64,000 bases of DNA from Streptomyces sp. NBC_01268 (GTDB lineage: Bacteria > Actinomycetota > Actinomycetes > Streptomycetales > Streptomycetaceae). Within the stretch, counting starts at the first letter, position 1; each line of letters begins with the position of its first letter. Position numbers and translations under genes: made by a program. The stretch covers positions 3,720,001 to 3,784,000 of the forward strand of contig NZ_CP108454.1 in the NCBI RefSeq assembly GCF_036240795.1. The letters are read 5' to 3'. The notes beneath the pieces were generated by a model. It saw nothing but the letters and a program-made list of their open reading frames with translations, was not told the origin of the DNA and did not search any database. This document shows positions 33,954 through 52,966 of this stretch, piece by piece.

Positions 33954-34657
33954 AGCGGTCCCCTCGATCGATGGTGCGGATCGGGGCCATTGTCGGGCCG
34001 CCGTACGGTCGTGGCCGTGAGGACCAGACCGTCCTTGACGAGAAACCCTCCTTCGAACCCGGTCAGCCGTACGCCGTCCACCACCGGCCCCTCGACGAGG
34101 AGCCGGGCGGTGAAGGTCGAGGTGCGCGGCTGGAAGGAGACGGTGGCCTCCTTGAAGTCCAGCCACCGGCCGGTCAGCGGCGACCAGGCCTTGAAGACGC
34201 TCTCCTTCGCGCTGAACAGGGCCCGGTCCCAGTGCACGTCCGGCCGGACCGCGGCCAGTTCGGCGAGGTGGGCCCGCTCCTGCTCGCCGGTGACCAGGTG
34301 CAGCACCCCGGTCCGGTCGAGCGCGGCGTGCGGTTCGGCGTCGAAGCCGAGCGCCGCCAGCTCCGTGGCACGGGCCACGGCCGCCGCCCGGTAGCCGGCG
34401 CAGTGGGTGATGCTCCCGACGATCCCGGCCGGCCACCGCGGGGCCCGGGAGGCCTCGTACGGGATGGCGACGGGGGCCACGCCGAGTCCGCCGAGGGCCC
34501 GCCGGGCGCAGGCCCGGGCGGTGGTGAACTCGCGGCGCCGCGCGGGGACGGCACGGGCGAGCAGGTGCTCCTCGCCCGGGAAGGGGACCGGCACCCCGGC
34601 CGGGTCGCCGAACGCTTCCGCGGTCGCGACCGGCCGGGGCAGCAGTTCCTCGATCAT
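33950..34657 (-). CDS. 4'-phosphopantetheinyl transferase (EntD/Sfp superfamily)
   Basis: A 235-residue enzyme that moves phosphopantetheine from CoA to the Ser of carrier domains, needed to activate the four PCP domains of this cluster. Motifs are GSITHCAGYRAAAVA (about 80), the magnesium-binding FDAEPH (about 107) and FSAKESVFKAW (about 155), as in EntD-type transferases. ATG 34657 begins five bases after the preceding stop; its ribosome-binding site is weak, so coupling to the YqcI/YcgG gene is likely. It overlaps rsgA by four bases. An integral cluster gene by position and function. Confidence 0.93.
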   Translation of the reverse strand: MIEELLPRPVATAEAFGDPAGVPVPFPGEEHLLARAVPARRREFTTARACARRALGGLGVAPVAIPYEASRAPRWPAGIVGSITHCAGYRAAAVARATELAALGFDAEPHAALDRTGVLHLVTGEQERAHLAELAAVRPDVHWDRALFSAKESVFKAWSPLTGRWLDFKEATVSFQPRTSTFTARLLVEGPVVDGVRLTGFEGGFLVKDGLVLTATTVRRPDNGPDPHHRSRGPL

Positions 34658-34662
34658 CGGAG

Positions 34663-35340
34663 CTAGCCGGCCTTCCGCAGCTCGACCTTCGGACGCGGGG
34701 CCTGCTCTGCCAGCGCCGTCAGCGCCGTCACGGTCGCCGCGTCCTCCCACCACCGGACGGGGCGGTCGATCGGGTCGATCGGCATGACGGACTTGAACAT
34801 GTCGTTCTCGAGGTTGGCCAGCTCCGCGTCGTACGGCTTGCCGGTCGCCTTGAACGCCCGCTGGATGCGGACCCGGCGGCGGTCGATCAGCTCGGCGTTC
34901 CGCTCGAAGGTGGAGGCCGGCTGGAGCAGGAAGTAGGTCTGCGGGCTGCCGAAGTTGTACCGCGGCGAGTGCTCCGGGTAGCAGGGCGCGAAGGAGACGA
35001 CGAAGAAGCGCTCGCCGCCGATCATCGCGTACCAGGTCTCGTCCGGATCCGGGTCGTCCTGGATGTACACCGACGGATAGAGGTCGCACAGGGCCTCGAA
35101 GAAGCGCCGGGTGAGACGGATCAGGGCCGGCAGGGTGGCACCGAGCTCCGGGTCCTCGAAGGTGAGCAGCATGCCGTCGAGCTCCCGCTCGCGCGCCGAG
35201 GCGAAGAACTCCTCGATGGTGTCGCGGTGTTCGCGCAGTCCGGCCTCGACGTCCCTGCCGGGGACGCTGACCGGGGTGCCCATACGGGACGGCTTGGCGA
35301 AGGGACAGTGGGTCGTCCGGACGATCTGGTCGAAACTCAT
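34663..35340 (-). CDS. YqcI/YcgG family haem-dependent N-hydroxylase (GntA-like)
   Basis: A 225-residue soluble protein. CPFAKPSRMG near residue 12 and VSFAPCYPEHSPRYNFG near 115 are marks of the YqcI/YcgG family. The one characterised group, GntA of guanitoxin biosynthesis, is a haem-dependent enzyme that N-hydroxylates a guanidine. By that precedent this protein may hydroxylate nitrogen on an arginine-type building block, in line with the VioC-like enzyme of the second operon. The conserved Cys and His residues include candidates for haem ligation. It starts seven bases after the MFS gene, with GAGG before ATG 35340. Confidence 0.78.
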   Translation of the reverse strand: MSFDQIVRTTHCPFAKPSRMGTPVSVPGRDVEAGLREHRDTIEEFFASARERELDGMLLTFEDPELGATLPALIRLTRRFFEALCDLYPSVYIQDDPDPDETWYAMIGGERFFVVSFAPCYPEHSPRYNFGSPQTYFLLQPASTFERNAELIDRRRVRIQRAFKATGKPYDAELANLENDMFKSVMPIDPIDRPVRWWEDAATVTALTALAEQAPRPKVELRKAG

Positions 35341-35347
35341 GCTGACC

Positions 35348-36604
35348 TCACAGCTTCACTTTCTGCGGTTCGGTGACGGGTGCGGAGGCGCGGCAGCCGA
35401 GCACGTAGAACCACCAGCCGAGGACGACCAGGGCGATCAGCGCGGCGAACATCGCGGCCGGGGAGGCGTGCACGAGGAGGAAGCCACAGATGATCGGACC
35501 GATCGCGACCCCGATGTGGACGAGGTTCTGCGCACCGAAGTAGCTGCCGCGGAGGTTCGCGGGAGCGATGTTGTCGATGAACATGTACTCGGCGGGGACC
35601 ACGATGACCTCGCCGATCGTGAAGACCACGATCGCCGCGACGATGATCCACACCTCGGTGGAGAGCGCCATGCCGACCAGGCCGAGGACGAAGGCCCCGG
35701 TGCCCCACGTGAGCCAGCGCAGCAGGGTCTTCTCCTTGAGCCGGCTGCCGATGACGTACTGGGTGGAGATCACGACGATCGCGTTGGCGGCCGAGATGTA
35801 CGCGACGAGCCGGTAGGCGCTGTCACGGGACTCGACCAGGACCAGGTACTGGGACATGTAGGTCAGCAGCGGCCCGTAGACCACGATGCTGAGGATGCCG
35901 CCGAGGGTGAACAGGCCGAGCCGGCGGTCGGCCCGCATGACCCGCAGCACCTCGCGGAAGTTCATCGACTCGTCGGAGTCGGAGGACTCCTCGGCGCCCT
36001 CGGCGCCCTTCGCCCCGGCCGGGCCTCCCGTGAACAGCCTGCGGAAGATCACCAGCGGCAGCAGGGCCGCGAAGATGACGCCGGCCGCGAGCCAGAACGG
36101 GCCTCCGGTGCCGGCCTTGACGGTGAACACGCCCAGGAAGGGGCCGACGGCCGCGCCGATGTTCTGCAGCGAGTAGCGCAGCGAGAACACCTTGGCGCGG
36201 TTCTCCGAGGGCAGCAGGTCGGCGAGGAGCGCGTTGGCGGCGACGCTCATCGAGGAGGAGGCCGTGTTGGCCACCAGCAGCAGGCCGATGACCAGGACCG
36301 GGGAGTCCAGGAAGGGCAGCACGCCGTACAGGCCGGTGAGCAGCACGTCCAGGACGATCATGAAGTCGACCTTGACGAACCGGTCGGCGAGGTAGCCGCC
36401 GTAGACGCTCACCATGGTGCCGACCAGCAGGCAGACACCGAGGACGTAGCCGACGGTGGCGCCGTCCATGCCGAGCGAGTCGTTCAGGTAGATCGGCAGA
36501 TAGGCGAGGATGCCGAAGAAGCTGATGGCGCGCGCCATCGCGCAGAGCAGCATGATCCGTACGGCGGTGGGCAGTTCGCGGATCAGCTGGACGAAGTTCT
36601 TCAT
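35348..36604 (-). CDS. Major facilitator superfamily exporter
   Basis: A 418-residue transporter with 12 predicted helices in two halves separated by an acidic loop ([12 protein letters not shown], about 200-212). MFS marks are [14 protein letters not shown] (motif A region, about 67-80) and [28 protein letters not shown] (about 120-147). It probably exports the cluster's peptide and so gives self-resistance. Its ATG at 36604 overlaps the stop of the large NRPS gene by four bases, so the two are translationally coupled. No regulator sits beside it. Confidence 0.93.
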
Positions 36605-39600
36605 GCCCGAGCCTCCCCCGCGATGGTCTCGATGATCTCGATGAGCGTTTCCTTGACGAATTCGATCTTCTTCTCGTCGAAGAGATCGGGATGGTGGCCG
36701 AAGAGCAGTTCCAGGCGCTCTCCGGGGATCACGGTGATGCCGAGCGGGTAGTGCGAGACGCCCTTGGCGCCGTCGGTGCGCTCGCTCGCGCGCAGCCCGC
36801 CGAGGTCGGCGGCGTCGTCCTCCTGGTCGGGGTAGTTCTGGAAAACGTAGTACGAGTCGAACAGCTCGCCCGTACCGGCCAGGCGCTGGATCTCGGTGAG
36901 ACCCAGGTGGCGGTGGGGGAAGACGTCGAGCTGGGCGGACTGCACCCGGGTCAGGGTGGTCCGCAGCGGCTCGCCGGCCTCGGCGCGCACCCGCAGCGGC
37001 ACGGTGTTGATGAGCAGGCCCACGACGGACTCGATGCCGTCGATCTCGGCCGGCCGCTCGGAGACCGTGGTGCCGAAGACGACGTCCTCCGTCCCGGTGA
37101 GCCGCCCGAGGAGCAGGCCCCAGGCGGTCTGCACGGCCGTGTTGAGGGTGATCCCGAGGCGGGCGCAGGCCCGCTCCAGGTCCCGGGTCAGCTCGGCCGG
37201 CAGCACCGCGCTCGTCGTCCGGGGCAGCACGTGGGAGGCGAGCCCCGGGGTGCCGACACGGGTCGGGCCGGCGAGCCCGTCGAGGTAGGCCTGCCAGGCC
37301 GTGACGGCCTCCGCCGCGTCCTGACCGGCCAGCCAGGCCAGATAGGCGCGGTACGGGGTGACCGGCGGCAGCGCCTCGCCGCGGCCCGCGTACAGCTCGA
37401 ACAGGTCGTGCCAGACGACCGGCATGGACCAGCCGTCGAGCAGGATGTGGTGGTCGGCGACGAGGAGTTCGTGCCGGGTGGCGGCGTAGCGGATCAGGCT
37501 GAAGCGGAGCATCGGCCCGTGCGCCAGGTCGAAGCGCAGCCGCGCGTCCTCGGCGACGATCCGGTCCCGCTCGACCTGCTGGTCGGCGGGCGGCAGTCCG
37601 GTCAGGTCGTGCAGCCGCCACGGCACCTCGACGGTCGAGCGGACGACCTGGACCGGGTTCTCCAGGCCGCGGACGGCGAAGGAGGCCCGCAGGTTGGCGT
37701 GGCGCATGAGCAGCCCGTGGGCGGCGGCGCGCAGCCGCTCGGCGTCGAGCGGCCCCTCCAGGTCGAAGACGGTCTGCCCCTGGTAGGGGTCGTCGTCGTG
37801 CTCGGGGTCGGCGGAGGCGCTGACGTGGAGCAGCAGGCCCTGCTGGAGCGGGGCGAGCGGCAGCACGTCGGCGAGGCCGGGATAGGTCCGCTCCAGCTCG
37901 GTGAGCGCGGACTGCTTGAGCGGCAGCAGGGTGATGTCGGAGGGGGTGAGCCCGCCGAGCTCGGGGTGGGCGGTGAGGCCCGCGAGGGCTGCGAGCAGCT
38001 GCTCGAAGCGGTCGGCGAGGGCGCCGACCTCCGCCGCGCCGAACAGACCCGTGTCCCAGCTCCAGCGGACCCCCGCCGAGACGCCGTCGGCGCCGGGCCG
38101 CACCTCCACGAGCAGCGCGTACCGGGCCGCCGCGTCGCCCGGCTCGCCGAAGCCGTACCGGAAGGCGACCCGGGACGGGCCGAACTCCGCGTTGGTCGCC
38201 GCGAGTTCCGCGTGGTTGCGGCCCTCGGACGGGGTCTGGCGGACCTGCTCCTTGACGCGCTTGAGGGCGCGGGCGAGGCCCTTCGGGTCGGTCAGCGCCC
38301 GGTCGATGCCGGCCAGGCCCGGGGTCAGCTTGACCGGGTACGGGGCCGGGACCGGGTCCGTCGCCAGGTCGACGCGGAGCGCTGACTGGGCGGCCGGCAG
38401 CCGCCGGGCACGCCACTCGATGAGGGCGGGCGCGAACGCGGCGAGCGCGATGTGCTCGGGCGCGGCGTGGAAGATCCCGGGCAGCGCGCCGAGCAGCGCG
38501 CCGGCCGCCTCCTCGTCGAGGCTCCGGTCGAACGCGGCGTGTTCCAGGGCCGGTTCGCCGTACGACGGGTCGGGGGTCTCCAGGGTCTTCAGCCAGTGCG
38601 GCAGCTCGGTCGCGGCGACCGCGGCCGGGTCGACCGCCTCGGCTGCCTGCGCGGCGCGGGCGATCAGCGCCTCCACGGTCTGGTGCTGGAAGACGTCGCG
38701 CGGGGTGATGACGAAGCCCTCCGCGCGGGCCCTGCTGACCAGCTGGATGGAGCGGATCGAGTCGCCGCCCAGGTCGAAGAACTGGTCGTCGACGCCGACC
38801 GTCTCCAGGCCCAGGACCTCCGCGAACAGCCGGGCGAGGGTGATCTCCCGCTCGGTGCGCGGCGGCCGGACGGCCCGCGAGGTGAAGTCGGGGGCGGGCA
38901 GCCTGCGGGTGTCCAGCTTGCCGTTCGGGGTGAGCGGCAGCCGGTCGAGGAGCACGACCGCCGCGGGCACCATGTGCTCGGGCAGCTGCCTGGCCGCGTG
39001 CCGGCGGACCTCCAGGGCCAGCTTGCGGGTGTGCTCCTCGGCGCGCGGGTCGTTGCCGTGCGCGTACAGGCCGCGGCCCTCGGCGGGCGCGTGCCGGAAG
39101 ACGTCGGTGAGCCAGGGCGCACCGGCCCGCTCCGGCCCGATGAGGACCGCGTCGAACAGGTCGCCGTCGGCGGCGTCGGTCCAGGTGAGCCGGGCCTCGT
39201 AGCCGAACTCGGCGGCCAGCGCGTGCAGGGCCTCCGGGTCGGTGCCGGGCCGCTCCACGGGGACCAGGGTGCGGACGGCGGCCGTGCTCTCGGTGCGGAT
39301 GCGCCGGGCGGTGAGCACCTCGGCGGCGACCCGCCGGTTGGGGATGCCGGTGACGCGCAGCAGACCGGGCCGCCCGTCCGCCAGGTGCGCGCGCAGCGCC
39401 TCGGGCCCGTCCCAGGCCAGCTCGGCGGCGCCGGCGACGGAGACCAGCTCGGCGCCCCGCTTGTGCAGCACGACCTCGTAGCGGAAGTCCGTCAGCTCGT
39501 TGCTGTGGTGACCGCGCTTGAGCTGGATGTCGACGCCCGCGACCTCCGGGACCTCCTCGCCGATCCGGCTGAAGAAGGCCGGGTCCAGGAGGAGTTCGCT

Positions 39601-42600
39601 CTCCAGGGCCATGGTGTGCTCGACCAGCTCGCGCACCACCCCGGCCTGCTCGTCCGCGTGCGCCCCGCCGTGCAGGGCGATCGCGGTGAGGAAGGGGTGG
39701 AGCAGTCCGAGGTGCCGGATGTCGCCGAGGAAGATCCGGCCGCCGGGCTCCAGGAGATCCATGGCCTGCCGGATCACGTCGATCAGGTAGGGGACGCTCG
39801 GGAAGTACTGGGCGACGGAGTTGATGACGACGGTGTCGTAGCGGTGGCCCGCGAGGTCGCCGATCTCGTGGCCGGCGAGGCTGCGCAGCATGATCCGGTC
39901 GCGCAGCTCCTCGGAGGCGGCCGCCCGGTTGCCCAGGGTCTGGATGAGCGAGGGCGAGAAGTCGACGCCGGTGTAGTGGTCGACGTGCGGGGCGACCTTC
40001 CACAGGATGAGACCGGAGCCGACGCCGACCTCCAGGACGCGGCGCGGCTTCAGGTCGAGGATGCGGGTGATGGTGGCGTCCTGCCACTCGCGCATCTCGT
40101 CCAGCGGAATCGGCCCGTTGTCGTAGCTGCTGTTCCAGCCGGTGAAGTCCTGCTCGACGCCCAGGTCCTCCTGCTCGCTGTACCCCTGCTCGTGGATCTC
40201 CTGCCACTTGTCGACGTGCTCGATGTCCTCGGCGAGGTCGTGCGCCCGCTCCTCGCCGCTCCTCGCCACGACGTAGCCGATGAGCTGCTTGTGGTCGGGG
40301 GTGTCCTCGCGGACGACGACGACGGACTGGGCGACGTCGTCGTGGGTGTCGAGGACGGCCTCGATCTCGCCGAGCTCGATCCGCATGCCCCGGATCTTGA
40401 CCTGGTCGTCCGCGCGGCCGACGAAGTCCACGACGCCCTCGCCCGAGGGCAGGGTGCGCCACTTGGCGAGGTCGCCGGTGCGGTACATCCGGCCGCCGGG
40501 CTCCCCGTACGGGCAGGCCACGAAGCGCTCGGAGGTCAGGCCGGGCCGGTTGAGGTAGCCGCGGGCCAGGCCGTGACCCGCGATGTACAGCTCGCCGACG
40601 ACACCCGGCGGAACGGGCCGCAGGGCCGCGTCGAGCACGTACACGCGGGTGTTGTGCAGCGGACGGCCGACCGGCACCGAGTCGGCCTCGAAGGCGCTCC
40701 CGGCGTCGCCGACCCGCCAGTACAGCGTGTCGACGGTCGCCTCGGTCGGACCGTACGCGTTGATCATCGTCCGGCCGCGCGACCAGGTCGCGGCGAGCCC
40801 CGGCGGGCAGGCCTCGCCGGCCACCATGATGTGCGGGACCGCGGCCAGCGCGTCCTGGGCCATCGAGCCCAGGATCGTCGGCGAGAAGGTGATGTGCGTC
40901 GGCCGGTGGCGGGCGGTCAGCGCGCGCTGGCGGTCCGGCGACAGCAACTCCTCCGGCGAGGTGAGGATGACGGCCGCGCCCGAGAGCAGGGTGCAGCACA
41001 TCTCGCAGAAGGTCGGGTCGAAGTTGATCGACGAGAACTGCAGGAAGCGGGAGCCGGCGTCCAGGCCGAACCGCTCGATGTAGCTGCGGGCCAGGTTGGG
41101 GATGCCCCGGTGGGTGACGGCCACGCCCTTGGGGCGGCCCGTCGAGCCCGAGGTGTAGATGACGTACGCCAGGTCACCGGCGCGCAGCGGCGCGCGCCGC
41201 TCGGCGTCGGTCGGGGCGTGCTCCGGGCGCGCGTCGAGCTCCGCCCGTACGGACGGGTCGTCGAGTTCGAGCCGGACCACGTCCCGGGCCTCGGCGGGCA
41301 GCTTGGCGAGGACGTCGCCGGTGGTGATCAGGACCCGCGGGCGGGTGTCCTCGACCATGAACGCCAGGCGCTCCGGCGGGTAGTCGGGGTCGAGCGGCAG
41401 GTAGACGCCGCCGGCCTTGAGGATGCCGAGCAGGCTCGCCAGCAGGTCGGGCGAGCGGCGCAGCGACAGGCCCACGACGTCGTCCCGGCCGACGCCCCGC
41501 CCGATCAGCCAGTGCGCGACCCGGTTGGCGCGCCGGTCGAGCTCGGCGTAGCTCAGCTCGGTGTCCTCGTGGACGAGGGCGAGCGCGTCGGGGGTCCGCG
41601 CGACCTGCGCCTCGAAGAGGGTGGGGAAGGTGGCGTCGGGCAGGTCGAGCGCGGTCGCGTTCCAGCCGTCGAGGACGGTGTCCCGCTCCTCGACGTCGAG
41701 CAGGTCGATGGAGTCCAGGCGCCGCGCGGGATCGGCGGCGACCAGGTCGAGGACGCGCAGCAGGTAGCGGGAGAAGCGCTCGACGGTGGCCCGGTCGAAC
41801 AGGTCGGTGGCGTACTCGATCTCGCCGCGCAGGCCGTCCGGGCGGCCCGCCCGGTCGAAGCGCTCGGTGAGCTCGACCGTCAGGTCGAACTTGGCGGTCC
41901 GGGTCGGCACCGTCTCGTGGACGGCGTCGAGCCCGGGCAGCCGCCAGTCGGGCTCCACGTTGTTCTGGAGCACCAGCATCACCTGGAACAGCGGGTGGTG
42001 GCTGGTGGTGCGGGCCGGGTTGAGGACCTCCACCAGGTACTCGAACGGCAGGTCCTGGTGGTCGTAGGCGGCCAGGTTCGACTCGTTGACGCGCGCCAGC
42101 AGTTCGGTGAAGGCCGGGTTGCCGGAGGTGTCGGTGCGCAGCACCAGCGTGTTGACGAAGAAGCCGACGAGCTCGTCGAGCGCGCTGTCGGCGCGGCCCG
42201 CGAGCGGCGAGCCGAGCGGGATGTCGCTGCCCGCGCCCAGCTTGCTCAGCATGGTCGCGGTGGCGGCCTGGAGCACCATGAAGAGGCTGGCCCGCTCGCG
42301 CTGGGCCAGCGCCTGCAGCCGCTCGGTCAGCTCCGCGCCGACCTCGAAGGGCACGACGTCGCCGCGGAAGGTGGCGAGCGCCGGGCGCGGCCGGTCGGTG
42401 GGCAGGTCGAGCAGCTCGGGCGCGCCGGCCAGCCGCTCGCGCCAGTAGGCGAGCTGCCGGGACATGGCCGAGTCGGGGTCGTCGGTGGAGCCGAGCAGCT
42501 CGCGCTGCCACAGCGTGTAGTCGGCGTACTGGACGCCCAGCGGCGCCACGTCCGGCCCGGCGCCGCGCAGGGCCGCCTCGTACGCCTCGCACAGGTCCTT

Positions 42601-44856
42601 GACCAGCGGGGCGAGCGACCAGCCGTCGGACGCGATGTGGTGGATGCAGAGCAGCAGGACGTGCGCGTCGGGGCCGGTGCGGAACAGGTCGACGCGGGTG
42701 GGGATCTCCGCCGACAGGTCGAAGAGGTGTCCGGCGGCCTTGTCGACGGCGGCCTGCACCTCCGCCTCGGCGACCTCGTGGACCGCGATCTCGACCCGGG
42801 CCTCGGCGGCCGGCACCACGATCTGCTCGGCGCCCTCGGGGCCCTCGCCGAAGTAGGTGCGCAGGCTCTCGTGCCGGGCGACCAGGTGGTCCACGGCCTT
42901 GCGCAGGGCGTCCGTGTCGAGCGCGCCGGTGAGGCGGACCGCGATCGGCAGGTTGTAGGTGGTGCTGGGGCCCTCCAGGCGGTGCAGGAACCACAGCCGC
43001 CCCTGCGCGTACGAGACGGGCAGGTGCGCGCCGCGCTCCCGCACGCCGGGCGCGGGCCGGGCCGGGGCGCCCGCGTCGAGGCGGAGCGCGAGGGCGGCCG
43101 GGGTGCGCTCCTCGAAGACGGCGCGGAGGGGGAGTTCGACGCCGAGCTCGGCGCGGACCCGGGCCACCAGGCGGGTGGCGAGCAGCGAGTTGCCGCCCAG
43201 GTCGAAGAAGGCGTCGTCGGCGCCGACCCGGTCGACGCGCAGCACCTCGCCGAAGAGCGCGGCCAGCGCCCGCTCGCCCTCGGTGCCGGGCGCGCGGTAC
43301 GAGGCGGAGGTGCCGAACTCCAGCGGCGGCAGGGCCTTGCGGTCGACCTTGCCGGCCGGGGTGAGCGGGAAGCGGTCCAGGACCGCGACTCCGGCCGGGA
43401 CCATGTGCTCGGGCAGCCAGGCGGCGAGCGCGGCGCGCAGCGCGCCCGGCTCGGGGCGGTGGCCTGCGGCGGGCACCACGTAGCCGGCCAGGTGCGTGGC
43501 GCCGGGGCCGTCGTCCTCGCGGACCACGACCCGGGCCTGCGCGACCTCGGGCAGGCGGCGCAGCGCCTCCTCGATCTCGCCGAGCTCGATGCGGTAGCCG
43601 CGGATCTTGACCTGCTCGTCGACGCGGCCGAGGAAGTCGAGGGCGCCGTCCGGGCGGCGCCGCACGACGTCGCCGGTGCGGTACATGCGGGCGCCGGGGG
43701 TGTCGCCGAACGGGCAGGCGACGAAGCGCTCGGCGGTCAGGCCGGGACGCCCGTGGTAGCCGCGGGCCAGGCCGTCGCCGGACAGGTACAGCTCGCCGGG
43801 CTCGCCGTCGGCGACCGGCCGCAGCCGCTCGTCGAGGACGTGGACGCCGGTGTTCCACAGGGGGTGGCCGATGGTGACGGGCTCGCCCGCGCGGACCGGC
43901 GCGACCAGCGACCAGATGGTGGTCTCGGTCGGGCCGTACAGGTTCCACACCTCGGCGTGCCCGTCGGCCGCGAGGAAGTCGGCGAGGTCCTGCGGCAGCG
44001 CCTCGCCGCCGCACAGCAGGCGGATGCCCGCCGGGAGTTCGGCCGGCGACCAGCCCGCCTCGCGCAGCAGCTGCCACAGCGCCGGGGTGCCCTGGACCAG
44101 GGTCGGCGCGGCCTCGGCGAGCCGGCGGCGCAGCGCGGCGCCGTCCACGGCGGTCTCCCGGGGCACCAGGTGCAGGGTGGCCCCGTTGACCAGCGGCAGG
44201 TAGAGCTCCAGGCCCGCGATGTCGAAGGAGATCGGGGTCGTCGACAGGACCGTGTCGGCCTCGCCCACCCCGTACCGGTCCGACATGAAGGCGAGGAAGT
44301 TCGCCAGCGAGCGGTGGGTGACGACGACGCCCTTGGGGCGGCCGGTCGAGCCGGAGGTGTAGATCGTGTACGCGCCCTGGCCGGGCCCGGTGGAGCGGCC
44401 CGTCGGGTCGGTGCCGGGCTCGCCGGCCTCGTCGCCCGGGTACAGCCGGGCGGTGCCCTCGGCCACCGGGCCGAGGCCCGGCTCGACGGCCGGGGTGGTG
44501 ATCAGGGCGCGGGGGCGGGCGTCGGCCGTCATGTAGGCCAGCCGCTCGCTCGGGTAGCCCGGGTCGAGCGGCAGGTACATCGCGCCTGCCTTGAGGGTGC
44601 CCAGCAGCGCGGCGACCAGCTCCGGCGAGGACGGCAGCGCGACGGCGACGGTGTCGCCGGGGCCGATGCCGAGGCCGCCGAGCCGGTGCGCGATCCGGTT
44701 GGCGCGGGCGTCGAGCTGCGCGTACGTCAGCTCGGTGGTGCCGTCGGTGACGGCGACGGCGGCCGGGACGCGGACGGCCGTCGCCTCGAAGCGGCCGACG
44801 AGGCCGTCGGCCCACGGGGCGGCGGCGCCCGCGGAGTGCTCCAGCTGTGCGGTCAT
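36601..44856 (-). CDS. Nonribosomal peptide synthetase, A-T-C-A(MT)-T-truncated E-C
   Basis: 2751 residues. A1 (about 20-505) reads D-I-L-Q-L-G-L-I-W-K at the ten specificity positions, a glycine code. T1 has S557 in GGNSLL. C1 (about 610-1060) has H739-H740-IASDG. A2 (about 1085-1530 and 1950-2000) reads D-P-C-F-M-A-A-V-D-K, for which I know no assignment; a methyltransferase with VLEVGVGSG near 1605 is inserted before A10. T2 has S2033 in GGDSIRS. Residues about 2065-2310 resemble only the second half of an epimerisation domain. C2 (about 2315-2745) has intact H2469-H-ILLDG and an LPLAPLQQG start like DCL domains. There is no terminal T or TE; those are on a separate protein. ATG 44856 overlaps the MbtH stop. 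Confidence 0.95.
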
Positions 44857-45092
44857 GAGTGCAGGTCCTGTCCGGTGGTCGCGGCCGGCGCGAGGGCCGT
44901 CCAGTGCTCCTCGACGTACCCGAGGCAGGCCGTGCGCGTCCCGGGGCCGAACGCGGCCTCCCAGCCGGCCGGCACCTCGGCGACATCGGGCCACAGCGAG
45001 TGCTCGCCGGCGGCGTTGGTCAGGACGCGGTAGACGCCCGACTCGTTCTCGAACGGGTTGGTCGCCTCGTCCGTCTGCTGTGCCTTGCCCAT
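44853..45092 (-). CDS. MbtH-like NRPS chaperone
   Basis: A 79-residue protein with the MbtH signature [24 protein letters not shown] then [10 protein letters not shown] and [14 protein letters not shown] (three conserved Trp residues W34, W44, W65 approximately), given in parts. MbtH proteins bind adenylation domains and are needed for their folding or activity; this one probably serves A1 and A2 of the large NRPS, whose start codon overlaps its stop, and perhaps the Thr-activating A domain. ATG 45092 has TGAGGA just upstream. Confidence 0.95.
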
Positions 45093-45097
45093 GGTCC

Positions 45098-46183
45098 TCA
45101 GCCCTCGCCCACGAAGTCGTCGATGCGCGCGGCGATCTCGACCGCGTCGGTCATGCAGAGCTTCACGCCGTACGAGTCGGAGTCCATGACCTCGGCGGTC
45201 AGCTCCCCGGTGATCGCCGCGCGCCACTGCTCGAAGGTCTCGTTGTCCTTGGCGAGCAGCATCAGCGCGTCCACGTCCAGCGGCTCGGGACGGTAGGTCT
45301 CCAGGGCCCGCGCGGTGGTGCGGAAGGCCCGGTAGACGCGCTCGGCGAAGCGGGTCGCGCCGCCGCCCCGCGCCGCGGCCTCGGCGCCGAACAGCACCGC
45401 CGCCACCTCCGCGTACACCTTCTCGTGCTCGGCGTCTGCCGGGTCGAGCGCCGGGTGCTCGGTGTGCGGGGCGATGAGCCGCAGCATGTCGTAGCGGTAG
45501 TCGACCAGCCGGACCTGCTCGGTGCCGGGCTCCTCCGCGCCGGTGCGGGAGCCGTCCAGGTAGCCGTCGACGATCACCAGCTTCCGCAGGCCCAGGCCGC
45601 GCTCCTCCGCGATGCGGGCGATCTCGTAGCCGATCACGCCGCCCGCGCAGGCACCCACCAGGTGGAAGTCGTCCTCGCCGAACTCGTCCTCGATCAGGTC
45701 CGCGTACTGCTGGGCCAGCTCCCGCATGTCGTCGGGGACGGACACGTCGCTGATGTGCGGGGACTGGATCCCGTAGCAGGCGCGGTCGGCGCCGAGCAGC
45801 CGCACCAGGTGCCCGTAGCCGTCGACCAGGCCGGTGCCCGGGTGGATGAAGACCAGCGGGGTGTGCGCGCCCTGGTTGCTCATGCGGATCATGGAGCGCT
45901 CGGTGGGCGCGGCCTGCAGGATCGCCTTGTTGGCGCACAGCTTGCTGAGGGTGCGGTACCGCAGCAGGTCGCCCATGTTCAGGGACCAGCCGAGCCGCTG
46001 GTTGATCTGCTCGATGGTGACCAGGGCCAGGAGGGAGTCGCCCCCGGTCGCGAAGAAGTCGTCGTCGAGCCCGACGTCCTCCCGGTCCAGCGTGGTCTTC
46101 CAGATCTCGACGAGGGTCTGCTCCACCAGGCTCTGGCCCGGCGTGACCTCGGACTCCTCGATGGTTGTCTGCCGAGCACTCAC
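45098..46183 (-). CDS. PCP-thioesterase didomain with a Cys nucleophile
   Basis: A 361-residue protein. Residues 15-90 are a carrier domain with S50 in GGDSLLA. Residues 105-361 are a type I thioesterase fold starting [14 protein letters not shown]. The nucleophile elbow is VGACAGG with C179 in place of the usual Ser, and the acid is probably in IVDGYLDG. No His is found in the last 80 residues, where the catalytic His is normally placed, so the mechanism may differ. The free PCP complements the NRPS, which ends in a C domain, and is the likely acceptor of the residue carried over by the SyrC-like protein. GTG 46183 has GAGAG upstream. Confidence 0.88.
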
Positions 46184-46263
46184 AGCGGAACTCTCACTTT
46201 CGTCGCTAAGGACAGCTATGGGGGGCGGGGCGGGCGGGGCCGGTGGGCCCGCTGGGGGGCGGG

Positions 46264-47046
46264 CTACGCCCACCCGCCCGTGAAGGGGATGACGTCGCCG
46301 GTGAGGAAGTCGGCGGAGCCGCTGGTCAGGAAGACCACCAGGTCGCCGATCTCGCGGGCGGTGCCGAGGCGGCCGGCCGGCAGCAGGCCGCGGAGCTTCT
46401 CCCGGCCCTCGTCCGTCGCCCACGCCTCCGGCGGGTAATAGGTCTCGGACTCAAGGAAGTTGGGGGCGACCGCGTGCACGACGACCCCGTGCGGGGCGAG
46501 TTCGCGGGCCGCGGCCTGCGCGTACACGGAGGCCGCGGCACGCAGCGAGCTGTAGACCGAGAAGCCGTGCTCGGGCCGCTGCGGGGCGGCCGAGGTCAGC
46601 ACCACGATGTGGCCGCTCCCCCGCCGCTTCATGTGCGCGGCGGCCTTGCCGAGGACGGCCGCCGGGGTGACGAGCAGGGCTTCGGCGGCCCGCCGCAGCT
46701 CGGCCGCGTCGGGCTGGTCGACGGGCTGGAAGCGGGCCGGGTAGACGTCGTTGCTGACCAGCACGTCGAGCCGGCCGTACCGCTTCACCGCCTGCCCGAC
46801 CGCCCCGGCCGGGGTCTTGGCGTCACTCGCGACGGCGCCGTCCCGGGTGTCCTCGAAGGCGGCCCTGGCGGCCTCGTCGAGGAAGTCGTCGTCCTGGCAG
46901 AACACCGTGTACCCGGCCTTGCGCAGCGCCTCGACCGCGCCGGGCCCGGCGTAGCGCGTCGCCTGCGTGACCAGGGCGACGCGCTCCGCCGGGGCGGCCG
47001 TGCGGGAGCCGGGGGGACCGGCGGCGGAAGGGGTGTCCGCGCTCAC
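46264..47046 (-). CDS. Halohydrin dehalogenase-like protein (SDR fold, cofactor-independent type)
   Basis: A 260-residue protein of short-chain dehydrogenase fold. The NAD(P) motif TGxxxGxG is replaced by T27-QATR-Y32-A-G34, fitting the halohydrin dehalogenase motif T-x4-(F/Y)-x-G that makes a halide pocket. The catalytic set is S152-x12-Y165-x3-R169, with Arg in place of the SDR Lys, also diagnostic. Other HheC-like stretches are LDVLVSNDVY, FQPVD, MKRRGSGHI and RLGT-REIGDLVVFL. Such enzymes close vicinal haloalcohols to epoxides and release halide. Beside a Thr chlorinase, 4-chlorothreonine is the obvious substrate. GTG 47046 overlaps the SyrC-like stop (GTGA). No homologue in an NRPS cluster is known to me. 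Confidence 0.87.
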   Translation of the reverse strand: MSADTPSAAGPPGSRTAAPAERVALVTQATRYAGPGAVEALRKAGYTVFCQDDDFLDEAARAAFEDTRDGAVASDAKTPAGAVGQAVKRYGRLDVLVSNDVYPARFQPVDQPDAAELRRAAEALLVTPAAVLGKAAAHMKRRGSGHIVVLTSAAPQRPEHGFSVYSSLRAAASVYAQAAARELAPHGVVVHAVAPNFLESETYYPPEAWATDEGREKLRGLLPAGRLGTAREIGDLVVFLTSGSADFLTGDVIPFTGGWA

Positions 47047-48221
47047 GCGCCACCGCCGATGAACTCCCGCAGCATCGTGTAGACCTCGGGGTCCGGGATC
47101 AGGATGTCGTGGTGGGTCCCCGACTCCCGCTCCTCGACCCGGGCCTCGCCCCGCACCAGGTCGCCGAAGTGGCGGGCCGTGTCGGGGTGGGTCATCCGGT
47201 CCGTGCTGCTCGTGGCGATGAGCACCCGCTGGGTGATCGCCCGGGCCGCCTCGTTCGCGTCGTACGCCATGAGCGCGTAGTTCTGCTTCGCGTACCGGTG
47301 GAACAGCTCCACGTCCCCGTACGGGTAGAGGATGAACGGCGCCAGCCGCGGCTCCACGCCGAACAGCATGTTGGGGTCGAGGAAGAGGCTCAGCGTGCTC
47401 CGGGCCCGCTCGACGCCGGCCGCGGCGGTGGCGAGCACGCTCTGGAACTGCTTCTGGAACGGGGTGCGCATGACGCCCGCGCCGAAGTTCAGGTCGGGGT
47501 GGAGCACCGTGAGGGTCTCCACCCGGTCGCCGAACGCGGCGGCCGCGGCGACGCCGACCGGCGCCCCGCCGCAGATCCCGACCAGGTGGGCCCGGGTGAT
47601 CCCGTACTCCGTGAGCAGCGCGCCCATCAGGGCGGTCTCCTCGTCGAAGTCGCCCGCCGGGGTGTCGAGGCCGCGCCAGTCGCCGAACAGGTACGGGTTC
47701 TCGTAGGTGACGACGAGCCGGCCGTCGGGTCCCGAGGACAGCTCCTCCAGCCAGGGCCGGAACAGCGTGGCCGGCACGCCGGAGGGCAGGATCAGGACGA
47801 TCGCCTCCTCGCCGGCCGGTCCCGCGGAGAAGGCCTCGAAGGCGGGTACGCCCGCGGCCTCGATCCGGCGCCGGCCCGGGAGGGCGGCGAGTCCGGACGG
47901 GCCCGCCGCGAGGTCCTCCGGTTGCCCCGAGCTCTCGGCGACGGGACGCCAGCTGCCCAGCTCCAGGTCGACATAGGTGCTGAGGGCGACCTCCAGGGCG
48001 GACGGCTGCTGGGGTGCGGTGGCCTCGAACCACGGGACGACCAGGCCGTACGCGTCGCCGACGGCGGCCAGGACCTCGTTGCACCGGGCCGCCTCGGCCG
48101 CGGAGTACTCCTCCGTGGCCCGCTCGCCGGCCGGGAAGACCCGCAGGGTCTTCGACGACGCGGCGAGCAGCGGCTGGCACAGTTCGAGGACCTCGACCAC
48201 GCTCAGGGTCTTGGTGGTCAT
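47043..48221 (-). CDS. SyrC-like aminoacyltransferase (alpha/beta-hydrolase fold, Cys nucleophile)
   Basis: A 392-residue alpha/beta-hydrolase-fold protein with nucleophile elbow LVGICGGA (C217) and an Asp/His pair likely in TSSTDRM and GTHHDIL near 330 and 370. In syringomycin biosynthesis SyrC has this build and shuttles 4-chlorothreonine from the free carrier SyrB1 to the last carrier domain of SyrE through a Cys thioester; CmaE does the same for coronamic acid precursors. By analogy this protein connects the A-PCP protein to the PCP-TE protein. It starts one base before the halogenase stop and overlaps the dehalogenase gene, so all are made together. Confidence 0.86.
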   Translation of the reverse strand: MTTKTLSVVEVLELCQPLLAASSKTLRVFPAGERATEEYSAAEAARCNEVLAAVGDAYGLVVPWFEATAPQQPSALEVALSTYVDLELGSWRPVAESSGQPEDLAAGPSGLAALPGRRRIEAAGVPAFEAFSAGPAGEEAIVLILPSGVPATLFRPWLEELSSGPDGRLVVTYENPYLFGDWRGLDTPAGDFDEETALMGALLTEYGITRAHLVGICGGAPVGVAAAAAFGDRVETLTVLHPDLNFGAGVMRTPFQKQFQSVLATAAAGVERARSTLSLFLDPNMLFGVEPRLAPFILYPYGDVELFHRYAKQNYALMAYDANEAARAITQRVLIATSSTDRMTHPDTARHFGDLVRGEARVEERESGTHHDILIPDPEVYTMLREFIGGGA

Positions 48222-48222
48222 G

Positions 48223-49155
48223 TCAGAACTTCTTCCCCCGGGTGGTCTCCGTGACCATGCGGTTGTCGGCGTTGTTGTTCTCTCCGCTGACCAGGACGGA
48301 GCCGTAGCGCTCCAGGCTGATCCGGCCGCCGTACTCCTCGATGTGCTCGCTGTCCGGGTAGACCGTGACCGTGGACGGCACGTAGCGGGAGGCGAAGCCC
48401 ATCCGCATCTCGTTGGTCTTGCCCTCGTGCGGGTGCGAGGCGTGCATCAGCGTCGACCAGAAGATGATGAACTGGCCCGGCCGCATGACCTGCGAGACGG
48501 CCTGGTCCTCGTCCGGCGTCCAGTTCGGGTCCTTCTGGAGCTGGCGGTAGTCGTAGCCGAAGAAGCCGCGGCGGACGCCGTCCTTGTCGACCGAGTTGAT
48601 CGAGTTCGGGTCGTAGTGCATCCGCTTGGTCTCGTCGTAGTTCATCGACTCGTGCGTGCCGGGGATGAACTGCAGGCAGCCGTTCTCGACGGCGGCCTCG
48701 GTGAACGCCGACCAGACGGTGATGGTGCCGCCGAAGTCGGAGTTGTCCGGCCACAGGATCTGCGGGGTGCCCGAGGCGTTGGCGAAGGTGTCCGCCTGGT
48801 GCCAGTCGGTGCCCTCGTCACCCGGGTGCTTCGGGAAGAACTCGGTGCGCCAGCAGATGACGTCCGGGCCCAGGATGGAGTTCACCCGGTCGACGATCTC
48901 GGCCCGCCCGATGTGGGAGGCGAGGAAGTCGTTGTCGAGGTGACGGTCGTAGTTGGAGATGTTGGTGGCGCCGGCCAGCGCGTCGTCCGGGTACACGGCG
49001 TCGCTGCGGTCCAGCAGCTGGAGCCGGGTCTTGCGCCACTGCGCCTTCATCTCCTCCGGCGTGTAGAGCGTGAACGGGCCGATGAAGCCCTGCCGGTGGA
49101 ACTGCGCGAGCTCCTCCTCGGAGAGGGCGAACGTCTTCTTGGCTTCGGTGGTCAT
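48223..49155 (-). CDS. Fe(II)/2-oxoglutarate-dependent halogenase (SyrB2-like)
   Basis: A 310-residue enzyme that reads as a close SyrB2 relative along its length ([43 protein letters not shown]). The decisive feature is H119-Q-A121: Ala replaces the iron-binding Asp/Glu of hydroxylases, opening the site for chloride. H238 (LMHASH) is the second ligand and R257 holds 2-oxoglutarate. SyrB2 chlorinates C4 of Thr bound to a carrier domain; a Thr-loading A-PCP gene lies immediately upstream, with an 11-base gap and AGGAGACC before ATG 49155. Product predicted: 4-chloro-L-threonyl-S-PCP. Confidence 0.95.
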
Positions 49156-49166
49156 GTCCAGGTCTC

Positions 49167-50981
49167 CTAGCGGGAGGTGAGGGCGAGCTGGTTCTTGACG
49201 GCGGCGGCGAGGGCGGCGATGTTCGCGCCCTCGGCGAGCGTTCCGACGTTGAGGCTCAGCCGGTAGCGGTCGTTGACGACGCTGAGCATGTGGATCAGGG
49301 AGAACGAGGTGCCGCCGAGGTCGAAGAACTCGTCGCCGTCGGCGATCGCGGCCGCGTCACCGGTGCCGAGGACCTCGGCCCAGATGCCGCGCAGGGCGTC
49401 CTCCACGGAACCGCCGGCCGCGCTCTGCTCGCGGGCGCTGTCGGCGGCCTCGGCGAGCCGGAGCTCCAGGCGCTTGCGCAGGACGCTCTCGTCCAGCTTG
49501 CCGTTGACGGTGACCGGGAGTTCGTCGAGGGCGAGGTACGTGGAGGGCGCCATGTACGCGGGCAGCGCGGCGGCGACGGCCTCCTTCAGCTCCGCGGCGA
49601 GGGCCTCGGCGTCCGTGCCGGCCTCGACGACCGGGTAGGCCACCAGACGCGGGTCGCCGGAGCCGAAGTCGGCGACGAGGACGACCGCGTCGCGGACGGC
49701 GGGGTGCTGCTCCAGGACGGTCTCGATCTCGCCCGGCTCCACGCGGTAGCCGCGGATCTTGACCTGGCGGTCGGCGCGGCCCGCGTAGGCGAACTGGCCC
49801 GGGGCGGTCTGCACGCCGCGGTCGCCGGAGTCGTACCAGCGCTCGGTGGAGCCGTCGGCCAGGGTCCGCTCGACGAAGCGCTCGGCCGTCAGCTCCGGGT
49901 GGCCCAGGTAGCCGCGGGCGACACCGGCGCCGGCCACGTGCAGCCCGCCCTCGGCACCGATCGGCAGCTCCGCGCCCGACTCGTCGAGGACGGCGAGCCG
50001 CAGGTCGGCGATGGGGCGGCCGATGAGGCTGTCGCCCTCGCCGGCCAGGTCGGCCTCGGAGATGACCTTCCAGGTGACGTGCACCGTGGTCTCGGTGATG
50101 CCGTACATGTTGACGAGCGCCGGCGTCTCGATGCCGTGGCGCTCCACCCACGGCTTGAGCGAGCGGTAGTCCAGCTTCTCGCCGCCGAAGATCACGTACC
50201 GCAGGTCCAGCGGCCGGCCCTCGTCGACGCCGATCAGGTTGCGGAAGGCCGAAGGCGTCTGGTTGAGCACCGTGACGCGCTCGCGGCGCAGCAGCGTGAG
50301 GAAGGCCTGCGGGTCGCGGGCGGTGTCGCGGTCGACGATCACCAGGCGGCCGCCGAAGAACAGCGCGCCCCAGATCTCCCACACGGAGAAGTCGAAGGCG
50401 GTGGAGTGGAAGTTGGTCCACACGTCGGTCTCGTCGAACGCGAAGACCGGCGCGGTGGCGGTGAACAGCCGGACCGCGTTGCGGTGTTCGATCTCGACGC
50501 CCTTGGGCTCGCCCGTCGAGCCGGAGGTGAAGATGACGTACGCGAGGCTCTCGGCGTCCGCACCCTGGTGCCCGGCCGGCGCCTCGGCGACGGCCTCGGG
50601 CAGCGCGTCCACCCGGACGACCCGACGGTCCTCGACGAGGGAGGCGGTCGCGGCGTGGGCGACGACCAGACCGGAGTCGCAGTGGCCGAGCACGAACTCG
50701 CGCCGCTCGGCCGGGTAGGCGGGGTCGACCGGCACGTAACCGGCCCCGGCCTTCAGGATGCCGAGCAGACCGACGACGAGCTCGGCACCCCGCTCGACGC
50801 AGAGCCCGACCCGCTGGTCCCGCCCCGCGCCCGCGGCCCGCAGCGCCCCGGCGAGCCGCTCGGCCCGCTCGTCCAGCTCGCGGTAGGTGAGCTGGGTACG
50901 GCCGTCGGTGACGGCGACGGATTCCGGGAAACGGGAGGCGGTCCGCTCGAAGTTCTCGTGGAGGGTGACACCGGGTTTCAT
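49167..50981 (-). CDS. Stand-alone adenylation-PCP didomain for L-threonine (SyrB1-like)
   Basis: A 604-residue A-PCP protein. Core motifs include [16 protein letters not shown] (A3), YGITETT (A5), YDSGDRG (A7) and NGKLDE (A10). The specificity positions read D-F-W-N-I-G-M-V-H-K, exactly the standard threonine code. The carrier domain near residues 530-600 has the pantetheine Ser in [11 protein letters not shown]. No C domain is present, so this is a loading platform for tailoring, as SyrB1 is for SyrB2. It is the first gene of the main operon; its ATG at 50981 lies about 127 bases after the predicted transcription start. Confidence 0.95.
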
Positions 50982-51651: not shown

Positions 51652-52689
51652 TCAGAGCCAGCCGGCCCGTTCGGCCAGCACACCGGTCTCGAACCGGCTG
51701 CGGGCGCCGAGGCGTTGGGAGATGGTGGACATCATGCGGCGGGTGGTGCGGAGCGAGAGCCCCAGCTTGCGGGCGGCGACCTCGTCGGTGTGCCCCTTCT
51801 GCAGCAGCCGGAGCAGCTCGATCTCCTGCTGGGTGGGCTCGTCGGCGGCGGGCTGCTGCTTGCCGTGCAGCGGGGCGGCGCTCTCCCAGACCATCTCGAA
51901 GAGGGCGAGGAGGGCGGTGACGACCCCGGGGGCGCGGAGGATGACCGCTCCGGCCCGGGTGTCCTCGGGGCTGACCGGGAGGAGCGCCACGGACCGGTCG
52001 GCGATCAGCATGCGCAGCGGCAGCGAGGGCGTGGTCCTGATCTCGCCGCCCAGTTCGGAGAGCCAGCGGGCGTACTCGGTGGTGGCCCGGTCGTTGCGGA
52101 CGCTGTCGAGGTAGATGGTGCGCAGTTTCACGCCGGCGGCCAGGGTCTGCTCGTCGAGCGGACGGCTGGCCTCCAGCGCCTCGGGGCTCTGGGCGCCGCC
52201 GGGCATGAAGGCCAGGATCTCGGAGTCGGCGTGCCGGGCGAGTTCGGACAGCCGGGCGCGCACCTCGTTGACGCCCTCCAGCTGCTCCAGACCGGCATTG
52301 CCGTGCCGGGCGCGCTGCGAGGCGTAGATCGCGGTGAGTTCGGCGGTGGCGGCCCGTACGGCGGCCAACTCCAGCTGCTGTGAATGGATTTCGGTTTCCC
52401 GCCGGTGAATGTAGGCGGCGAGGCCCACCTCCGGACTTATCGGAGCGACGTCCGTGGCGTCCTTGGCGGGGTAGAGCATGGACAGTTCCGCGAGTTTGTC
52501 CAGACAGCCGCGGACGGTCGATTCGGCCGCCCCCAGCTCCGCGGCGATCTCGGCGATCCCCCACCGCGGTTGGGTGATCACGAGCCGGTAGACGTCGACA
52601 CAGGTCTCGTCCTGCCCGATCAGCGACGCCAGCGACGAGAGCCCGGCACCTTGGCGCGTCCCTCCGCAAGGGTCGGCGAAGCCCCCCAT
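51652..52689 (-). CDS. LuxR-type HTH transcriptional regulator (with N-terminal winged-helix part)
   Basis: A 345-residue regulator. Residues 25-85 look like a TrmB-type winged helix (VYRLVITQPRWGIAEIAAELGAAESTVRGCLDKLAEL, quoted only to show the fold in part), a middle coiled and alpha/beta region follows, and residues 283-340 are a LuxR HTH (EIELLRLLQKGHTDEVAARKLGLSLRT). Similar orphan regulators often control secondary-metabolite genes. Its location at the head of the cluster makes it the candidate activator of both promoter copies. ATG 52689 has GAAGG seven bases upstream; ATG 52707 and 52728 are other in-frame options. Confidence 0.82.
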   Translation of the reverse strand: MGGFADPCGGTRQGAGLSSLASLIGQDETCVDVYRLVITQPRWGIAEIAAELGAAESTVRGCLDKLAELSMLYPAKDATDVAPISPEVGLAAYIHRRETEIHSQQLELAAVRAATAELTAIYASQRARHGNAGLEQLEGVNEVRARLSELARHADSEILAFMPGGAQSPEALEASRPLDEQTLAAGVKLRTIYLDSVRNDRATTEYARWLSELGGEIRTTPSLPLRMLIADRSVALLPVSPEDTRAGAVILRAPGVVTALLALFEMVWESAAPLHGKQQPAADEPTQQEIELLRLLQKGHTDEVAARKLGLSLRTTRRMMSTISQRLGARSRFETGVLAERAGWL

Positions 52690-52966
52690 TTTCTCACCTT
52701 CAGTCATCGGGTCGATCTTTCGAACCATTTGATCGCCCCGAATCAGTCGGCCCCGGAGTGGTCATTTCCGGCGAGAAGTTCAGGGCACCCTTTCGGGTGA
52801 GTGACATTACAGGACGAGGGCACTACTGGATACTGCGTCAAAACGAGGTTTAGAAACCGGTACCTCGGGAACCGCCCGGCGAATGATGAAAAATAAATGA
52901 ACGTCAGCCGGGGTGACGGCGGGCACGGTGATCGCGGTTCGCCCCACGGTTTCGGGGCGCCACGCA
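52690..52966. other. Intergenic region upstream of the LuxR-type regulator
   Basis: No gene is visible. It contains the regulator's promoter. Nested palindromes occur at 52844-52867: GGTTT-AG-AAACC (52847-52858) inside CGAGGT ... ACCTCG. A regulator or autoregulator site is possible. Confidence 0.45.

What the first reader, a model, noticed from the sequence alone, without database searches (positions are those of the whole stretch)
46264..50981. Predicted cryptic chlorination route: threonine to 4-chlorothreonine to epoxide
Four consecutive genes encode a Thr-code A-PCP protein, a SyrB2-like halogenase with HxA, a SyrC-like transferase and the halohydrin dehalogenase. 4-Chlorothreonine carries OH and Cl on adjacent carbons, the substrate class of the last enzyme. 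The expected product is a 2-amino-3,4-epoxybutanoyl (oxiranylglycine) residue, an electrophilic warhead, or a product of opening the epoxide by another nucleophile. Cryptic halogenation is known for cyclopropane formation (coronamic acid), but by a different enzyme type.
Basis: partly seen in the sequence, partly recalled or inferred. Interest (0 to 1): 0.95.

Follow-up and report, generated by a model that had tools for sequence, protein, structure and literature searches.

The report
Chlorinate-then-dechlorinate epoxide gene cassette
A soil bacterium seems to put chlorine on the amino acid threonine only to remove it again with an enzyme until now known mainly from pollutant breakdown, leaving a reactive epoxide in a small peptide; if proven, it would give that enzyme family a natural biosynthetic job.

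Summary
The four genes are there as described. They start a tightly packed minus-strand operon: Thr-code A-PCP, SyrB2-type halogenase, SyrC-like Cys acyltransferase, halohydrin dehalogenase (HHDH), then PCP-TE, MbtH, a two-module NRPS ending in a C domain without its own PCP, and an exporter. The HHDH meets both family motifs, lacks the SDR cofactor motif, and its predicted fold is closest to HheC/HheA. The HHDH shows purifying selection and falls in a clade that holds all 15 halogenase-linked rows and none of 77 unlinked ones. Best reading: Thr-PCP to 4-Cl-Thr-PCP to an oxiranylglycine residue, probably in a Gly-(Arg-type)-epoxide tripeptide. Product, timing and fate of the epoxide are inferred. 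The route has a genetic precedent, largimycin, whose epoxide also comes from cryptic Thr chlorination; the enzyme there is unknown and its authors found no HHDH homologue. New here is a dedicated, conserved HHDH inside a biosynthetic cassette, which offers a natural function for the family.

The parts
49167..50981 (-). A-PCP didomain (604 aa), predicted Thr-activating; SyrB1/Thr1-like
   Evidence: Pfam AMP-binding + PP-binding; DFWN[IV]GMVH by eye in 5 of 5 clusters; Thr1 5n9w/5n9x 386 bits
48223..49155 (-). SyrB2-type Fe(II)/2-oxoglutarate halogenase (310 aa); H119, A121, H238, R257
   Evidence: SyrB2 2fct 527 bits; TIGR01762 above cutoff; residues
47043..48221 (-). SyrC-like alpha/beta-hydrolase, presumed aminoacyl shuttle, with Cys nucleophile motif GICGG (392 aa)
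   Evidence: weak Abhydrolase_1 match below cutoff; G-[IV]-C-G-G in 5 of 5 clusters; SyrC role described in PMC8949500
46264..47046 (-). halohydrin dehalogenase (260 aa, GTG start); T27-x4-Y32-x-G34 and S152-x12-Y165-x3-R169
45098..46213 (-). PCP-TE didomain (371 aa; start chosen here), presumed acceptor of the chlorothreonyl or epoxide residue; TE has GACAG (Cys) in place of GxSxG
   Evidence: Pfam PP-binding + Thioesterase; alignment
44853..45092 (-). MbtH-like protein
   Evidence: Pfam MbtH
36601..44856 (-). NRPS (2751 aa): A1-PCP-C-A2(with methyltransferase insert)-PCP-C; terminal C domain HHILLDG has no PCP of its own
   Evidence: Pfam, motifs and A-domain positions in five clusters
35348..36604 (-). 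MFS transporter, presumed exporter
   Evidence: Pfam MFS_1; present in the other four clusters
34663..35340 (-). YqcI/YcgG-like protein, accessory, in the Streptomyces-type clusters only
   Evidence: Pfam 20.6 bits, below cutoff 27; synteny
33950..34663 (-). phosphopantetheinyl transferase (not found in the S. galbus cluster)
31404..32426 (-). arginine beta-hydroxylase-family Fe/2OG oxygenase, accessory, in the Streptomyces-type clusters only
   Evidence: NCBIfam GntD 407 bits over cutoff 345; PDB L-arginine beta-hydroxylases and CmnC; synteny
51652..52728 (-). LuxR-type (GerE) regulator upstream of the operon
   Evidence: Pfam GerE; present in G310, G385 and S. galbus clusters

Best explanation
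This is a biosynthetic cassette for a cryptic chlorination that makes an epoxide. The A-PCP protein activates L-Thr. The SyrB2-type halogenase replaces a C4 hydrogen by chlorine on the PCP-bound Thr. The SyrC-like protein carries the residue to the PCP of the PCP-TE protein, where the terminal C domain of the NRPS joins it to a dipeptide (predicted Gly plus an arginine-type, possibly N-methylated, residue). At a step not yet placed, the HHDH lets the C3 hydroxyl displace chloride, giving a 2-amino-3,4-epoxybutanoyl (oxiranylglycine) residue, and the product is exported. Shown by sequence: gene identities, active-site residues, gene order and conservation. Inferred: substrate of the HHDH, timing, peptide sequence, survival of the epoxide.
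Against: No metabolite or enzyme assay of this cluster was found. HHDH reactions are reversible and open epoxides too. An aminoacyl epoxide thioester might cyclise or be attacked, so the epoxide could be an intermediate. The TE has a Cys nucleophile in 4 of 5 clusters and seems to lack the usual His in three (by eye), so release is unclear. 38 of the 40 other genomes with such halogenases have no HHDH at E<=1e-25, so chlorothreonine is often the end point or is handled otherwise. 10 of the 15 'linked' rows rest on equal contig lengths.
Confidence: 0.8

Rival explanations
1. The epoxide is only an intermediate: the HHDH, or an internal nucleophile (amide or amine N, a hydroxyl of the Arg-type residue, water), opens it, so the final residue is a 4-substituted Thr, a ring or a diol. 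This differs from the best explanation only in the last step.
For: HHDHs open epoxides with azide, cyanide, nitrite, cyanate and others. Some largimycin mutants show a C-19 hydroxy group instead of the epoxide. A hydroxylase of the arginine beta-hydroxylase family sits in the Streptomyces-type clusters.
Against: No gene for an unusual small nucleophile and no epoxide hydrolase was recognised among the cluster proteins scanned. The SyrC-like protein is of the alpha/beta-hydrolase kind and has a chance-level match to a Cif-like protein (E 0.089), but its nucleophile is Cys, as expected of a shuttle.
Confidence: 0.3
2. The SDR-like protein is a reductase or dehydrogenase, not a dehalogenase, and the product keeps 4-chlorothreonine.
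Against: No SDR motif 1 or 2; Tyr32 stands in the glycine-rich cofactor loop and Arg169 in place of Lys; the ten best PDB sequence matches and the 11 best structural entries are dehalogenases.
Confidence: 0.05
3. The HHDH is a protection or editing enzyme that destroys free 4-chlorothreonine (or mischlorinated residues), while the product keeps chlorine.
For: Free 4-chlorothreonine is bioactive (recalled). HHDHs are presumed to serve detoxification and degradation of haloalcohols (PMC11536340).
Against: It would make an electrophilic amino acid, with no epoxide hydrolase recognised alongside. 38 of 40 other genomes with the halogenase lack an HHDH. Gene order places it inside the assembly-line genes in two phyla.
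Confidence: 0.1
4. The Cys thioesterase closes a beta-lactone on the Thr hydroxyl, as in obafluorin, and the chlorine or epoxide chemistry competes with it.
For: GxCxG TE motif, which promotes beta-lactone closure in ObiF (PMC6668435), in 4 of 5 clusters.
Against: P. umsongensis has GxSxG; the triad His seems absent in three of the Streptomyces-type TEs; a beta-lactone would use up the hydroxyl that the HHDH needs.
Confidence: 0.05

Closest known systems
Largimycin (lrg) pathway of Streptomyces argillaceus
   Same: Discrete proteins load, chlorinate and transfer Thr; chlorine is absent from the product and an epoxide stands in its place; halogenase knockout gives the plain Thr side chain (PMC9396626, outline and passages).
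   Different: Large NRPS-PKS; authors report no HHDH homologue in that genome, and the dehalogenating enzyme was still unnamed in the 2026 passages seen (PMC13200230). Here an A/C-type HHDH is part of the operon.
Syringomycin SyrB1/SyrB2/SyrC plus last SyrE module C-T-TE
   Same: Same split last module: A-T, halogenase, shuttle, and an A-less C plus T-TE acceptor (PMC8949500, passage).
   Different: Syringomycin keeps the chlorine (recalled). Here C and T-TE are on separate proteins, an HHDH is added, and the peptide is predicted to be far shorter.
Halohydrin dehalogenases HheC / HheA
   Same: Fold, both motifs, Ser-Tyr-Arg triad, halide-site residues.
   Different: 35-39% identical; sits in a biosynthetic operon; HheC lies in an operon with an epoxide hydrolase.
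Pseudomonas umsongensis HHDH (Xue et al. 2018; title only, in a reference list)
   Same: Very probably the cassette gene: the type-strain genome has one close match (288 bits, 57%), the next is 59.5 bits.
   Different: Described as a biocatalyst; whether its cluster was noticed was not seen, and that the strain carries the same gene was not checked.
4-Chlorothreonine pathway with Thr1 (Streptomyces sp. OH-5093)
   Same: Thr1-type adenylation.
   Different: End product is the chlorinated amino acid (recalled).

Membership tests
Halohydrin dehalogenase (HHDH) | Motif 1 T-X4-F/Y-X-G | tested here: met
   TQATRYAG, T27-G34; 15 of 15 linked rows; definition from PMC11976700
Halohydrin dehalogenase (HHDH) | Motif 2 S-X12-Y-X3-R | tested here: met
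   S152, Y165, R169; 15 of 15 linked rows
Halohydrin dehalogenase (HHDH) | No glycine-rich NAD(P) motif | tested here: met
   SDR motifs 1 and 2 absent; control of 29 paralogues: 0 with either HHDH motif, 24 with SDR motif 1, 25 with SDR motif 2
Halohydrin dehalogenase (HHDH) | Fold closest to known HHDHs | tested here: met
   A/C-type HHDHs first; G-type HHDHs rank among ordinary SDRs
Halohydrin dehalogenase (HHDH) | Halide release from a vicinal haloalcohol without cofactor | not testable with these tools
   needs assay; probable precedent in P. umsongensis seen as a title only
SyrB2-type carrier-protein-dependent halogenase | HxA facial site plus distal His and 2OG-binding Arg | tested here: met
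   H119-Q-A121, H238, R257 aligned to SyrB2 (their roles in SyrB2 recalled)
SyrB2-type carrier-protein-dependent halogenase | TIGR01762 above curated cutoff | tested here: met
   486.9 against 226.3 bits
SyrB2-type carrier-protein-dependent halogenase | Acts on Thr bound to a partner A-PCP | not testable with these tools
   partner A-PCP with Thr code is adjacent
SyrC-type aminoacyl shuttle | alpha/beta-hydrolase fold with Cys nucleophile | tested here: inconclusive
   G-[IV]-C-G-G in 5 of 5 but only a sub-cutoff Pfam match; not compared with SyrC itself
Cryptic-chlorination epoxide pathway (largimycin type) | Product carries epoxide and no chlorine | not testable with these tools
   no metabolite data

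The most novel reading that the evidence does not exclude
A whole clade of halohydrin dehalogenases, found in Streptomyces, Pseudomonas and other bacteria, evolved as biosynthetic epoxide-forming enzymes that act on 4-chlorothreonine in short NRPS cassettes; the warhead is an oxiranylglycine in a Gly-(N-methyl, hydroxylated Arg-type)-epoxide tripeptide.
Probability: 0.6. Interest if true: 0.85.

Novelty: new variant of a known kind. Interest (0 to 1): 0.78.

Why it matters
The natural role of HHDHs is open: a 2016 review says other physiological functions cannot be excluded, because only two known HHDH genes lie in an operon with an epoxide hydrolase (PMC4989007, passage), and the largimycin authors regarded known HHDHs as restricted to enzymes that degrade xenobiotics. 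A conserved HHDH between a Thr halogenase and its assembly line gives a specific natural substrate to test. It also offers an enzyme type for the step that the largimycin logic leaves open, and a genome-mining handle (SyrB2 + HHDH) for peptides with an epoxide warhead.

Tried and rejected
Ordinary SDR reductase: rejected by motifs and nearest structures. Chance neighbourhood: rejected by synteny in four other genomes and two phyla. First version of the paralogue control took the best local tblastn frame, gave SDR motif 1 in 10 and motif 2 in 22 of 29, and three rows (L155, L159, L162) were probably read in a wrong frame; repeated with the coordinates, which is the version cited. An acidic residue at the HheC W139 position as a marker for binding the substrate amine: Glu in 13 of 15 linked but also in 26 of 77 unlinked rows, and the alignment slips there in many unlinked rows, so dropped. 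Halogenase tree: the linked halogenases are not a perfect clade, as one Pseudomonas row of unknown context (P0212, sister of P. umsongensis) lies inside; 2 changes, support of that 16-row set 89/73. HHDH tree: a short search with SH-aLRT only; 19 distant rows (P0046-P0064) and P0001 were left out, 2 of 79 unlinked loci were dropped for short matches, and HheC is a long branch whose exact place is not used. RsgA copy as self-resistance gene: three copies pass the cutoff in this genome, so only noted. Literature: ten searches of an open-access library listed no paper that I recognised as describing an HHDH in such a cluster; subscription papers are mostly not held and only listings were seen for most, so absence in print is not shown.
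Full report
What is there. The window lies in an 8.5 Mb single-contig genome, C1:3720001-3784000. On the minus strand, from 50981 down to 35348, eight genes follow one another with gaps of at most 50 bases or 4-base overlaps: A-PCP, halogenase, SyrC-like, HHDH, PCP-TE, MbtH, NRPS, MFS transporter (the PCP-TE start is my choice). The HHDH starts with GTG inside the end of the SyrC-like gene, so the longer ORF in the raw list overstates it.

The halogenase. It matches SyrB2 (2fct) at 527 bits and CytC3 at 419 bits over nearly its full length, and passes NCBIfam's chlorinating-enzyme model. H119, A121 (where a hydroxylase would have a carboxylate), H238 and R257 align with SyrB2 (roles recalled). 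Its partner A-PCP has the Thr code by eye and resembles Thr1.

Conservation. A scan of 84,980 species genomes gave 123 relatives, of which the best 80 were kept. Two loci carry the halogenase, S. galbus and P. umsongensis, and these have the highest HHDH identity (66 and 57%). The other 78 (at most 52%) show none by tblastn at E<=1e-10, though many loci are cut by contig ends. In a sample of 392 genomes of the window's genus, 41 have the halogenase at E<=1e-60, 34 of them at 60% identity or more and 7 at 40-43%. Four have an HHDH at E<=1e-25: the own genome, G310 and G385 beside the halogenase, and G142 (44%), with no cassette gene in its 3.7 kb locus. Of 398 genomes of the genus of P. umsongensis, only that one has an HHDH at this level. 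The eight core genes keep their order in all five clusters. P. umsongensis has one additional gene between HHDH and PCP-TE, and the accessory genes were not found in its 50 kb stretch.

Evolution. Ten of 28 database relatives at 55% or more share the exact longest-contig length with one of the 120 listed halogenase hits of 2128, read here as linkage; the strain name agrees too for Streptomyces sp. NPDC047971 and S. monticola. With the five clusters read this gives 15 linked rows, some of them close kin. In the HHDH tree of 127 rows one branch (SH-aLRT 100) sets apart 32 rows: 15 linked, 17 of unknown context, 0 of 77 unlinked. In the halogenase tree all 15 lie in a set of 16; the 27 halogenases from genomes without HHDH that were fetched and used all lie outside (16 further matches got no locus and were not used). 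dN/dS of the HHDH, by my own script, is 0.12 against G310 and 0.22 against G385, the lowest of the five genes compared.

How it probably works. In syringomycin the last module is split: SyrB1 (A-T), SyrB2, SyrC and the A-less C-T-TE end of SyrE (PMC8949500, passage). Here the NRPS ends in a C domain with an intact HHILLDG and no PCP behind it, and the PCP-TE is a separate protein, so the same logic fits. A1 reads DILQLGLIW (Gly by recall) and A2 DPCTMAAVD (no code known to me), by eye and unchanged in five clusters. The Streptomyces-type clusters have an arginine beta-hydroxylase relative and P. umsongensis a distant relative of an arginine hydroxylase, far below cutoff. This suggests, no more, that residue 2 is arginine-derived. 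A methyltransferase insert in A2 suggests N-methylation. The third residue would be 4-Cl-Thr, turned to oxiranylglycine by the HHDH. HheC takes ethyl 4-chloro-3-hydroxybutyrate, which differs from a 4-Cl-Thr ester only by the amino group (PMC4989007, passages).

Against the reading. No chemistry is shown. The TE's Cys nucleophile and apparently missing His leave chain release open. The HHDH could act on the PCP-bound residue, the peptide or the released product; in largimycin, dehalogenation is now placed before off-loading (PMC13200230, passages). The epoxide may be consumed. Most genomes with the halogenase manage without an HHDH (38 of 40 others).

Comparison with what is known. Cryptic Thr chlorination leading to an epoxide is published for largimycin (PMC9396626), with no HHDH homologue in that genome and the enzyme unidentified. 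A reference title shows that a P. umsongensis HHDH has been expressed and used in epoxide ring opening; the type strain has one close HHDH, in this cassette. So activity in this clade may already be known without its context, which I could not check.

Noticed in passing
31404-32426 (-): Arginine beta-hydroxylase-family oxygenase (GntD model 407 bits over cutoff 345) kept with the cluster in G310, G385 and S. galbus; hints that the second residue is arginine-derived.
   Followed up: partly
45098-46213 (-): TE with GACAG (Cys nucleophile) and, by eye, Ser where P. umsongensis has the usual triad His; G310 and S. galbus alike. Release mechanism unclear.
   Followed up: partly
32829-33950 (-): RsgA-type ribosome GTPase travelling with the cluster in G310, G385 and S. 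galbus; one of three copies over cutoff in this genome; might be self-resistance.
   Followed up: partly
34663-35340 (-): YqcI/YcgG-like protein (sub-cutoff), kept with the Streptomyces-type clusters; some relatives are N-oxygenases by recall.
   Followed up: no
L127:9370-10257 (P. umsongensis): Membrane desaturase-like gene, distantly like the arginine hydroxylase GntB (63 bits, cutoff 380), between HHDH and PCP-TE.
   Followed up: partly
L086-L112: SyrB2-type halogenases in genomes without any close HHDH; 12 of these 27 loci also show a SyrC-like neighbour at 27-34% identity: candidate chlorothreonine or largimycin-like clusters.
   Followed up: no
36601-44856 (-), about residues 2075-2310 of the NRPS: Stretch between PCP2 and the last C domain without a Pfam match of its own; by eye like the C-terminal lobe of an epimerisation domain, possibly a remnant.
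   Followed up: no
P0127: A 96% identical partial halogenase of Streptomyces platensis subsp. clarensis is named 'chemotaxis protein CheX' in public records, an apparent misannotation.
   Followed up: no
L118 (G142): An HHDH relative (44%) in the window's genus with no cassette gene in its 3.7 kb locus.
   Followed up: no
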